Shown one piece after another: positions 31,804-64,000 of a stretch of 64,000 bases of DNA (the first letter of the stretch is position 1; each line of letters opens with the position of its first letter). The notes below the pieces were generated by a model that was given only the letters and a program-made list of their open reading frames with translations, made no database searches and was not told the origin of the DNA. Origin of the DNA: Entomospira culicis (lineage in GTDB: Bacteria; Spirochaetota; Spirochaetia; WRBN01); contig NZ_CP118181.1 of NCBI RefSeq assembly GCF_028748145.1, forward strand, positions 1,116,211-1,180,210. Reading direction: 5' to 3'. Both the position numbers and the translations under genes were made by a program.

Positions 31804-31832
31804 TTGATTTTTCATGATAAATTGGCTAGAAT
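31804..31832 (+). promoter_or_regulatory. Promoter of the division/cell-wall cluster (rsmH)
   Basis: TTGATT (31804-31809), 17 bases, TAGAAT (31827-31832). The only nearby in-frame ATG (31831) lies inside this -10, so transcripts from here start after it. Confidence 0.7.
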
Positions 31833-32823
31833 GCTAGCAATACTATTGCGGACAAAGAGGAAGCGCCCTATCAGCAAGAATTCCTATCAAGGACACTATT
31901 CGGTACTAAAAGAAGAGTCGATTGTTACTCTACAACCTACTTCGGCTTCAGGTATCTGGATTGATGGTACCCTCGGCGAGGCAGGGCACGCAAGCTATGC
32001 GCTAAGCTCCTATCCAAGCATCAGCCTGATTGGGCTAGATGCCGACCCACAGATGCTCCAACGCGCCCATACCAACCTCATACCTTATGCAGGGCGCTAT
32101 CAATTGGTCAATCAATTTTTTGACGACTACTTCGCCCACTATCCACCCAACCAAGCTCCCCCCAGCACGATACTTTTAGATCTAGGTATTAGTATGTTCC
32201 ACTACAAAGGCGCAGCGCGTGGCTTCTCCTACGACGACGAATCCTCCCTCGACATGCGCCTAAACCCCAGTGGAGAGAGCGCCTACGATCTCCTCCTCAC
32301 CAAAAGCGAAAGCGATCTTGCTTCTATCTTCTGGCGCTACGGCGAAGAGAAAGAGAGCAGACGCATCGCCAAAGCCATCGTACACCAACGCAAAAGCGCC
32401 CCCATCACCAGCGCCAAAGAGCTAAGCAATCTCATCAAGTCCGTCATCAAACCCAAACCAACGCAATACCTTCACCCCGCCGCCAAGGTCTTTCAGGCGT
32501 TGCGCATCGCGGTCAATCACGAGCTCTCTCGCCTCGAACGCATGCTGCCCCTTGCCTTCTCTCGCCTAGAGACCAATGGCAAATTAGGCATCATCACCTT
32601 CCACAGCCTCGAAGATCGTATCGTCAAACACTTCTTCAAAGAGCTCACAAAATCATGCCAATGTCCCGATAATCAACTTAGATGCACCTGCCTTGGCGCC
32701 TATGCCAAGCAGATAAGCCCTAAAGGCATCACTGCCACGCCTCAAGAGATAGCAGAAAATCCTGCCTCGCGAAGCGCTCGCCTGCGCGTTATCCAAAAAA
32801 TTCGCCCCTACCCTAAGGAGTAA
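31831..32823 (+). CDS. rsmH: 16S rRNA (cytosine1402-N4)-methyltransferase RsmH
   Basis: A SAM-dependent methyltransferase of 16S rRNA, usually the first gene of the dcw cluster. The SAM loop WIDGTLGEAGHA, then LLDLGISMFHYKGAARGFSYD (RsmH-specific), QALRIAVNHEL and TFHSLEDRIVKHFF are all present. The start is uncertain: ATG 31831 is given as the only ATG, but it lies in the -10 of a good promoter and lacks a ribosome site. AGAGGA at 31856-31861 points instead to an AUC codon at 31870, which would give the N-terminus length expected for the family. Promoter reading and start choice are inference. Confidence 0.93.
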   Translation: MLAILLRTKRKRPISKNSYQGHYSVLKEESIVTLQPTSASGIWIDGTLGEAGHASYALSSYPSISLIGLDADPQMLQRAHTNLIPYAGRYQLVNQFFDDYFAHYPPNQAPPSTILLDLGISMFHYKGAARGFSYDDESSLDMRLNPSGESAYDLLLTKSESDLASIFWRYGEEKESRRIAKAIVHQRKSAPITSAKELSNLIKSVIKPKPTQYLHPAAKVFQALRIAVNHELSRLERMLPLAFSRLETNGKLGIITFHSLEDRIVKHFFKELTKSCQCPDNQLRCTCLGAYAKQISPKGITATPQEIAENPASRSARLRVIQKIRPYPKE

Positions 32824-32831
32824 TCCAATCC

Positions 32832-33061
32832 ATGTTCTACAAACACCTTACCCACACTCCTCAAATCTCATACTTAGCATCTCCACTCGCGTTGGCTTCT
32901 GTATTATCCAGAAGATGCCCCGCTATCCTAAGGAGTAACCCAATCCATGTTCTGCAAACACCTTACTTACACTCCTCAAATCTCATATTCAGCATCTCCA
33001 CACGCGCTGGCTTCTGTATTATCCAGAAGATGTCCCGCTATCCTAAGGAGTGCCTAAACCC
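32832..33061 (+). repeat. Two tandem 115-bp copies of the rsmH-end/ftsL-start junction
   Basis: Copies 32832-32946 and 32947-33061 are the same length with about 13 differences by my count. Each begins ATGTTCT.CAAACACCTTAC, resembling the first 25 codons of ftsL (M..KH.T...LAS.AL). Each ends with a relic of the rsmH tail, including CCTAAGGAGT and, in frame, a copy of the C-terminal residues (IIQKM.RYPKE). The series is thus genuine rsmH tail, ftsL-head copy, rsmH-tail copy, ftsL-head copy, rsmH-tail copy, genuine ftsL. A 77-codon frame from 32832 and a 36-codon frame from 32947 exist but look like by-products. Confidence 0.9.
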
Positions 33062-33343
33062 ATGACATGGAAACACTTTACCTACTCCCTGCTCCTACTC
33101 CTTCTCGCATCGGTTGCGCTCTTGCAAGTGTGGAGTGCGTGGCAATTTCAAATCAATGCCTATCAGCTTCGCTCCCTTGAGCGCCGACAAGAGCTTACCC
33201 TTGAACAAAATCGACGCCTTCAAGCCAACATTACCGCGCTCTCTGCTCCCGAGCGTTTACTCATTTTAATTGAACAAAATCCACAATGGCAACTGCGTCG
33301 CCTTGCAGGCGAAGATATCACGATTATTGACATTAAGGAGTAG
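33062..33343 (+). CDS. ftsL: FtsL-like cell division protein
   Basis: 93 residues: a short basic start (MTWKHFTYS), one hydrophobic helix (about 9-30), then a heptad-like coiled-coil region rich in Gln, Arg and Leu (about 35-75). Size, topology and position between rsmH and murF fit FtsL, a bitopic divisome protein that works with FtsQ and FtsB; sequence conservation in this family is low. The ATG lies after AAGGAGTGCCTAAACCC, the same layout as in the two upstream repeat copies. Confidence 0.75.
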   Translation: MTWKHFTYSLLLLLLASVALLQVWSAWQFQINAYQLRSLERRQELTLEQNRRLQANITALSAPERLLILIEQNPQWQLRRLAGEDITIIDIKE

Positions 33344-37938: not shown

Positions 37939-38180
37939 AAGATAAAGTCTAACCTCCGCCCAAGATATCTCCCCTAAAAGTCGATGATCTGCTATACTCA
38001 TAAAGGAAAGGGCATCTATCTACAAAATAAAGCCCAATCTCCTGCCAAGATATCTCCCCTAAAAGTCAATAATCTGCTACACTCATCAGAGAAAAGTCAT
38101 CTATCTACAAAATAAAACGCAACACCTAGCAAGATATCTACCCCAAAGGTCGATAATCTGTTATACTAACCCAAGCAGAC
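37939..38180 (+). repeat. Three 85-bp tandem repeats with promoter-like -10 elements upstream of ftsA
   Basis: Copies begin at 37939, 38024 and 38109 (period 85; the third is partial and degenerates after about 38175). Shared core: AAGATATCTCCCCTAAAAGTC, then GAT.ATCTG. Each copy carries an extended -10: TGCTATACT (37990-37998), TGCTACACT (38075-38083) and TGTTATACT (38159-38167). No good -35 is seen. This fills the 327-base gap between the ftsQ-like gene and ftsA, and could give ftsA-ftsZ up to three start sites. Confidence 0.85.
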
Positions 38181-62575: not shown

Positions 62576-63863
62576 ACGCCTCAACACCTACGAACTAGAC
62601 AACGTCGCTCTCATCTATCAAGCCCTCGTCTCCAAAAAAGAGAGCCACTTCTTCCGTCTCTCCCTCAACCTACAGAAGCCCGTTGTGATCGATATCCTGC
62701 AACAAGCGCTCCTCAATATTCTCCCACGCTTTCCCATCTTTCGTACCAGCCTAAAACGTGGTATCTTCTGGAATTATTTAGAAGAGAACTTTCACTACCC
62801 CACCATCATCCGCGACACCGAAATCGCCATGGGGCACGACATCACACAAGCACACGCCTATCCCTTTCGTGTACTCGTCTACCACCAACGCATCTCTTTA
62901 GAGACAACACATTTAATTGTTGACGGTAAAGCTGCCACCCAATTCTTGCAGTCGCTCTTCTGCGAATACGCCTATCTTTTAGGTGTAGAAATTCCCGATA
63001 ATGATGCGATTATTCGCCCCGAAACACCCTTGCAAAGCGAAGAGTTACATGATGCTTACAAAAATTTACTACTACAAAAAGCACTTCCCAAACCCAAAAA
63101 ACGCATGGGCGAAGCCTTTTACGAACCTCAACGCAATCGACGCCCCTTCGGCGTAGAGGTCGTGAGCTTTCGTCTCCCACTCGATCAAACCCTCCAACTA
63201 GCCAAGCAACATAAAGTAAGTCTAACCACGCTACTCACGGCATTTTACCTCACGGCGTATCAAGATCGGATGTTTTTACTCCCACCCAAACGTAAATTTC
63301 GTCGCCCGTTGCGCATCAATAATCCGGTTGATCTACGCCAATTCTTTCCCAGTAAAAGCTTGCGCAACTTCATCGGCTTCATCTCACACGAGATCGATCC
63401 ACGATTAGGGCTCTTCACTTTTGAAGAGATCCTCGCCCAAGTCCATCACACGATGAAAAAAGAGCTTCTGGATAAGCACTTTCAACCCTTTATTGGGCAA
63501 AATCTACGTAGCGAAAGCATTCCACTACTCGCCGTCATTCCGCTCTTCATGAAGCGAATGGTGCTCAAGCGCATTCACGCCCAAAATATGCGTCAAGAGA
63601 GCTCCGTACTCTCTAACCTAGGCGCATTCTCCCTCCCCGAAGAAGTTGCCTCGATGGTCAAAGATGTCGAATTCATTCCCGCGCCAAAGTATATCAATAA
63701 GCGCGACTGTTCCGTAATTAGCTTTAAAAATACCCTCATTCTCTCCATTAGCCGTACCTGCAAGCATAACCAGCTTGAACAATTTCTCTACGAAAGACTC
63801 ATTGAAGCGGGTCTCACCCCAAAATTGAGCACCTATCATGGGTATGAACAAGGGGAACATTGA
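62565..63863 (+). CDS. Condensation/alcohol-acetyltransferase-like acyltransferase
   Basis: 432 residues, soluble. Two-lobed chloramphenicol-acetyltransferase-type fold is suggested by LQQALLNILPRFPIFRTSL at the start and by TTHLIVDGKAATQFLQSL, which matches the HxxxDG active-site motif of this superfamily. A later RPLRINNPVDLRQFFPSKSLRNFIGFIS resembles the DFGWG-side loop. It overlaps the preceding membrane protein gene, and the two probably work together. Acyl donor and acceptor unknown. Its last 34 codons are duplicated directly downstream. Confidence 0.75.
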   Translation: MNDKRLNTYELDNVALIYQALVSKKESHFFRLSLNLQKPVVIDILQQALLNILPRFPIFRTSLKRGIFWNYLEENFHYPTIIRDTEIAMGHDITQAHAYPFRVLVYHQRISLETTHLIVDGKAATQFLQSLFCEYAYLLGVEIPDNDAIIRPETPLQSEELHDAYKNLLLQKALPKPKKRMGEAFYEPQRNRRPFGVEVVSFRLPLDQTLQLAKQHKVSLTTLLTAFYLTAYQDRMFLLPPKRKFRRPLRINNPVDLRQFFPSKSLRNFIGFISHEIDPRLGLFTFEEILAQVHHTMKKELLDKHFQPFIGQNLRSESIPLLAVIPLFMKRMVLKRIHAQNMRQESSVLSNLGAFSLPEEVASMVKDVEFIPAPKYINKRDCSVISFKNTLILSISRTCKHNQLEQFLYERLIEAGLTPKLSTYHGYEQGEH

Positions 63864-64000
63864 AACTAGAACGCAGTTCACAGCTAAGCATAACTGGCTT
63901 GAACAATTTCTCTACGAAAGACTCATTGAAGCGGGTCTCACCTCAAAATTGAGCACCTATCATGGGTATGAACAAGGGGAACATTGAAACTAGAACGCAG
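63762..64000 (+). repeat. Direct duplication of the 3' end of the acyltransferase gene
   Basis: 63762-63876 recurs at 63886-64000 (period 124, nine extra bases TTCACAGCT between). Only a few bases differ (CAG/TGG and CCC/CTC). The second copy keeps the C-terminal reading frame, KHNWLEQFLYERLIEAG... to QGEH and stop. Copies may continue beyond the window. Confidence 0.93.

What the first reader, a model, noticed from the sequence alone, without database searches (positions are those of the whole stretch)
32769..33130. Chimeric tandem copies of the rsmH-tail/ftsL-head junction
Between rsmH and ftsL lie two 115-bp units. Each carries a diverged ftsL start (M..KH.T...LAS.AL) joined to a diverged rsmH end (IIQKM.RYPKE and the CCTAAGGAGT ribosome site). 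Repeated slippage over the gene boundary would give exactly this order. Each unit still has a start codon and ribosome site, so ribosomes may begin small peptides before ftsL, which could tune FtsL level.
Basis: partly seen in the sequence, partly recalled or inferred. Interest (0 to 1): 0.72.

Follow-up and report, generated by a model that had tools for sequence, protein, structure and literature searches.

The report
Decayed duplicates of rsmH–ftsL gene junction
In a mosquito-associated spirochaete, the boundary between two neighbouring cell-division-cluster genes was copied in tandem twice, leaving two worn 115-base chimeric fragments between the genes that still carry ribosome-binding sites and start codons but show no sign of being working genes.

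Summary
Two 115-bp units (32832-32946, 32947-33061; 102/115 identical) sit between rsmH and ftsL. Each unit begins like ftsL (17-18 of the first 30 nt after ATG; none of 253 control gene starts reaches this). Each ends like rsmH (44/58 and 39/58 nt; best elsewhere in the window 31/58). In 58 other spirochaete genomes rsmH and ftsL abut or overlap (adjusted gap -25 to +49, median -4). Here the gap is 241, and removing the two units leaves 11. So the 230 bp is a lineage-specific tandem duplication of the gene junction, probably made in two steps. The DNA occurs nowhere else in the genome. Contig sizes identify the genome as Entomospira culicis BR151.

The proposed role (small peptides tuning FtsL) is not supported. 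The two ORFs (77 and 36 aa) lack gene-like codon usage, no third-position bias exists between the units, and the RsmH tail and FtsL hydrophobic head have decayed. The AAGGAG sites and ATGs are intact, and the 77-codon frame ends in an ATGA overlap with ftsL. A termination-reinitiation relay is therefore possible but weakly supported (naive neutral-decay chance 0.2-1%, post hoc). Closest species were not available, so selection cannot be tested.

The parts
31804..32823 (+). rsmH (mraW), 16S rRNA methyltransferase; left parent of the duplication
   Evidence: Pfam PF01795 E=1.2e-97; matches in 145 of 148 class genomes
32774..32831 (+). rsmH tail plus stop and ribosome site: parental rsmH end, junction 1
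   Evidence: 44/58 to unit 1 tail, 39/58 to unit 2 tail, background maximum 31/58
32832..32946 (+). unit 1: decayed ftsL head joined to decayed rsmH tail
32947..33061 (+). unit 2: decayed ftsL head joined to decayed rsmH tail
   Evidence: 102/115 identical to unit 1
32812..32821 (+). CCTAAGGAGT, ribosome site of junction 1 (AAGGAG ends 11 nt before ATG 32832)
   Evidence: sequence
32927..32936 (+). CCTAAGGAGT, ribosome site of junction 2 (before ATG 32947)
   Evidence: sequence
33042..33051 (+). CCTAAGGAGT, ribosome site of junction 3 (before the ftsL ATG 33062)
   Evidence: sequence
32832..33065 (+). ORF1, 77 codons, spans both units; its TGA overlaps the ftsL ATG (ATGA)
   Evidence: codon score -0.19 vs genes 0.18 +/- 0.07 and off-frame -0.35 +/- 0.14; no Pfam hit
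32947..33057 (+). ORF2, 36 codons, in unit 2, ends 4 nt before the ftsL ATG
   Evidence: codon score -0.38
33062..33343 (+). ftsL; right parent of the duplication
   Evidence: similar small genes directly after rsmH in spirochaetes; codon score 0.27
33116..33121 (+). GCGCTC in ftsL, also at 32774-32779 in rsmH: possible microhomology of the first duplication (weak)
   Evidence: sequence; related GCGTTG 32889 and GCGCTG 33004 in the units

Best explanation
The insert is a lineage-specific, two-step tandem duplication of the rsmH/ftsL junction, now decaying as non-coding spacer. Step 1 (older): a segment of about 112-115 bp from the end of rsmH through the start of ftsL was copied in tandem, giving one chimeric piece (ftsL head + rsmH tail) while both parent genes stayed whole. 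Step 2 (later): a 115-bp unit, in a register beginning near CCTAAGGAGT, was duplicated again, presumably by slippage or recombination between the repeats. ftsL is most likely translated from its own ribosome site at 33042-33051; ribosomes may still start in the units, probably to little effect. Shown: repeat structure, parentage, absence from 58 relatives, insert length, lack of coding signature. Inferred: the recombination route and neutrality.
For: Chimeric order and in-register similarity to both parents. Insert = 2 x 115 bp exactly; 58 spirochaete genomes have adjusted gaps of -25 to +49 nt against 241 here, 11 after removing 230; most junctions read directly overlap or abut, commonly ATGA. 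No other copy in the genome. Two divergence levels at the 115-bp offset: 13/38 mismatches over 32774-32811 against 9/115 over 32812-32926, Fisher p = 2e-4, which suggests the two steps. Decay: unit tails lack the SARLRV-type motif kept in rsmH and relatives, unit heads lack the FtsL hydrophobic run, ORF codon scores are outside the gene range, unit differences fall 4/6/3 over codon positions. Other long-unit tandem arrays of this genome also lie at a gene edge (63762-64000) or in an intergenic region (37960-38167).
Against: The SD sites and ATGs of both units are fully intact and ORF1 is open over 230 nt to an ATGA overlap with ftsL. In a naive neutral-decay simulation both survive in only 0.15-1% of runs, though this test was chosen post hoc. 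The middle of the units (about offset 30-57) resembles neither parent, so the original breakpoint is not resolved. Slower change in the real rsmH end (under selection) than in the units could mimic part of the two-step signal.
Confidence: 0.8

Rival explanations
1. Translation relay: the duplicated starts keep rsmH-ftsL translational coupling across the longer spacer. A ribosome ending rsmH at 32823 restarts at ATG 32832, translates ORF1 through both units, stops in the ATGA at 33062-33065 and restarts on ftsL; the peptide itself is irrelevant.
For: Intact AAGGAG and ATG in both units; ORF1 open to an ATGA overlap; relatives show tight rsmH-ftsL overlap that suggests coupling; survival of starts plus open frame is 0.15-1% under naive decay, frame alone 2.9% in shuffles.
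Against: A chimera built from today's parent sequences already reads open until close to the ftsL start, so most of the frame is inherited; the ORFs have no codon signature; SD sites of units 1 and 2 are predicted to pair with ACUCC downstream (-6.7 kcal/mol, shuffle z -2.7 and -1.2); ftsL has its own ribosome site.
Confidence: 0.12
2. The units act as regulatory RNA or leader (SD-sequestering hairpins, attenuator) that sets FtsL level.
For: Predicted SD hairpins in units 1 and 2; the whole stretch folds at z -1.8.
Against: No Rfam match above chance; no hairpin beyond chance at the ftsL ribosome site itself (z +0.4); no terminator in the insert on the coding strand; the C-rich coding strand makes SD pairing likely by chance.
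Confidence: 0.04
3. A conserved small gene (77 aa) lies between rsmH and ftsL.
For: Open frame with a good ribosome site.
Against: No Pfam match; codon score below all 253 genes; no room for such a gene in 58 relatives.
Confidence: 0.02
4. Insertion of a dispersed or mobile repeat.
For: None beyond being an insert.
Against: No second copy in the genome, plasmid records or viral contigs by motif; the sequence derives from the flanking genes.
Confidence: 0.01

Closest known systems
Short tandem duplications by slippage or microhomology in bacterial genomes
   Same: Head-to-tail copies with the parents left whole; copy number can grow once a repeat exists.
   Different: Here the unit spans a boundary between two genes of the division/cell-wall cluster, so each copy is a start-of-gene/end-of-gene chimera, old enough to have decayed.
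Overlapping rsmH-ftsL junction of spirochaete dcw clusters (ATGA type)
   Same: Same gene order; the ftsL ribosome site lies within the rsmH end or its copy.
   Different: Two extra decayed junctions are interposed; the relatives examined have none.
Upstream ORFs and leader peptides with termination-reinitiation
   Same: Small ORFs with SD and ATG that end at the next gene's start.
   Different: No evidence of translation, conservation or regulatory effect.

Membership tests
Tandem duplication of a gene junction | Adjacent head-to-tail copies with constant period | tested here: met
   period 115, TRF score 405-421
Tandem duplication of a gene junction | Copies homologous to the end of the left gene and the start of the right gene | tested here: met
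   tail 44/58 and 39/58; head 17-18/30, 0 of 253 controls
Tandem duplication of a gene junction | Absent in relatives, whose junction equals the locus minus whole units | tested here: met
   58 genomes, adjusted gap median -4; here 241 - 230 = 11. Nearest species of the genus not available
Tandem duplication of a gene junction | Microhomology at the breakpoint | tested here: inconclusive
   GCGCTC at 32774 and 33116, off by 3 nt from the 115-bp register; a shared 6-mer near this register is not rare
Regulatory uORF / reinitiation leader | Start codon with ribosome site upstream of the regulated gene | tested here: met
   AAGGAG 11 nt before ATG 32832 and 32947
Regulatory uORF / reinitiation leader | Coding signature or purifying selection | tested here: not met
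   codon scores at or near off-frame level; 4/6/3 differences by codon position
Regulatory uORF / reinitiation leader | Effect on expression of the downstream gene | not testable with these tools
   needs reporter or ribosome profiling

The most novel reading that the evidence does not exclude
A gene-boundary duplication that was retained because its chimeric copies form a chain of start sites and a 77-codon frame that carries ribosomes from rsmH to ftsL, keeping the two genes translationally coupled across a 230-bp insert with a peptide of no function of its own.
Probability: 0.1. Interest if true: 0.5.

Novelty: new member of a known kind. Interest (0 to 1): 0.22.

Why it matters
It is a clean, readable case of how spacer and spurious start sites arise between tightly packed operon genes: parents, duplication steps and decay can all be read from one sequence. 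If the start sites were under selection it would show how translational coupling survives an insertion. As it stands it mainly warns annotators not to call the 77- or 36-codon ORFs genes.

Tried and rejected
Looked for closer relatives: no other genome of the genus is held and only one other of the family, where rsmH is followed by tRNA genes rather than ftsL. The genome-contig scan gave only rsmH relatives of 47% identity or less. DNA searches of relatives, plasmids and viral contigs found no second copy. Rfam gave only a chance sub-threshold hit. No sigma-70-like promoter was found in the insert. A conserved small gene and a mobile repeat were considered and rejected. The first junction scripts missed loci on the minus strand and were redone. 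Enrichment of arrays in the dcw cluster (two within 5.4 kb) was considered, but four arrays are too few to claim it. Literature searches found no report of this junction duplication.

Full report
Observation. Tandem Repeats Finder gives a 115-bp period with 2.3-2.6 copies at 32789-33085. Written in register, rsmH ends at 32823, unit 1 is 32832-32946, unit 2 is 32947-33061 and ftsL starts at 33062. Units 1 and 2 share 102 of 115 bases. The last 58 bases of each unit match the end of rsmH at 44 and 39 positions, while the best ungapped match anywhere else in the 64-kb window, either strand, is 31. The similarity of the unit heads to ftsL is shorter: 17-18 of the 30 bases after the ATG, which no start of 253 other genes of this genome reaches (maximum 15-16), and it fades after about 30 bases. 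The middle of the unit (offset 30-57) resembles neither parent.

Identity of the genes and organism. The left gene is RsmH (PF01795, 1.2e-97). The right gene has no Pfam hit, but weak matches to it lie directly after rsmH in 58 spirochaete genomes, so it is FtsL by position and similarity. The genome has 1,769,585 bases in four contigs with a 1,639,587-base first contig. The remainder equals the sum of the three plasmids of 98,591, 28,402 and 3,005 bp listed for Entomospira culicis BR151 (PMC11636382), and the G+C content agrees (46%). The published assembly is a hybrid of short and long reads; the copies differ from each other and the unit is shorter than a read, so an assembly artefact is unlikely (inference).

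Comparison with relatives. For 58 spirochaete genomes with both genes on one contig, the distance between the rsmH end and the ftsL start, adjusted to the query ends, ranges from -25 to +49 with median -4. The window has 241, and subtracting two units leaves 11. Reading 31 junctions directly, about nine in ten have a plausible ftsL start within -8 to +3 bases of the rsmH stop, often ATGA (starts chosen by eye). The 230 bp is thus an insertion not seen in any other spirochaete examined. It is not a dispersed element: no second copy exists in the genome, and none was found in plasmid records or viral contigs. No other genome of the genus was available, and in the one other family member rsmH is followed by tRNA genes.

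History. Comparing each base with the one 115 further on gives two levels of divergence: 13 mismatches in 38 bases over 32774-32811, but 9 in 115 over 32812-32926 (Fisher p = 2e-4). The second level includes the ribosome site and spacer of junctions 1 and 2 (TAATCCAATCC, TAACCCAATCC), whereas junction 3, before the real ftsL, reads TGCCTAAACCC. The simplest reading is an older duplication of the junction that made one chimeric copy, followed by decay, then a younger duplication of a 115-bp unit whose edge lies near CCTAAGGAGT. A shared GCGCTC at 32774 and 33116 may mark the first breakpoint, but it is 3 bases out of register and such a match is not rare.

Function. The conserved RsmH ending (SARLRV type) is kept in rsmH and its relatives but lost in the units, as is the hydrophobic run of FtsL. 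The 77-codon ORF1 and 36-codon ORF2 score -0.19 and -0.38 on a codon log-odds measure, against 0.18 +/- 0.07 for genes and -0.35 +/- 0.14 for off-frame reading. Differences between the units fall 4, 6 and 3 on codon positions 1, 2 and 3 of the ATG frame. These argue against functional peptides. On the other side, AAGGAG and ATG are intact in both units, and ORF1 runs to an ATGA overlap with ftsL. A random frame stays open over this length in 2.9% of shuffles, and starts plus frame survive in 0.15-1% of naive decay runs. The test was chosen after seeing the data, and a chimera of today's parents is already open until shortly before the ftsL start, so this is a hint only. The SD sites of units 1 and 2 can pair with a downstream ACUCC (-6.7 kcal/mol, z -2.7 and -1.2), and the ftsL site shows no such excess.

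Context. In 470 kb examined, long-unit tandem arrays are rare: this one, an 85-bp array of 2.5 copies before ftsA (37960-38167), a 124-bp array at the 3' end of a gene convergent with recR (63762-64000 and beyond), and an in-frame 207-bp repeat in a proline-rich protein. All lie where an extra copy is likely to be tolerated, which fits ordinary duplication.

Verdict. Best explanation: a two-step, lineage-specific tandem duplication of a gene junction, now mostly neutral spacer.

Noticed in passing
window 37960-38167: 85-bp tandem array (2.5 copies) between ftsQ and ftsA; the first and third copies hold an extended -10-like TGNTATACT (TGCTATACT, TGTTATACT) and the second TGCTACACT, so possibly multiplied ftsA promoters. 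Single locus in the genome; the sigma-70 scan requiring a -35 box found nothing.
   Followed up: partly
window 63762-64000 (L158:1973-2220): 124-bp, 95-97% identical tandem duplication of the 3' end of a 432-aa gene, lying between it and convergent recR: another gene-edge duplication, recent.
   Followed up: partly
window 31804-31880: rsmH seems to have no ATG/GTG/TTG with a ribosome site where relatives start; the best-placed site (GAGGA 31858-31862) precedes an in-frame ATC at 31870, so a near-cognate start codon is possible.
   Followed up: no
L083: In the only other family member held, rsmH is followed by tRNA-like sequences and a glycosyltransferase-like gene rather than ftsL: the rsmH-ftsL adjacency is broken there.
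   Followed up: no
L138:17835-18273: In-frame 207-bp (69-codon) duplication inside a proline/threonine-rich protein of 581 aa.
   Followed up: no
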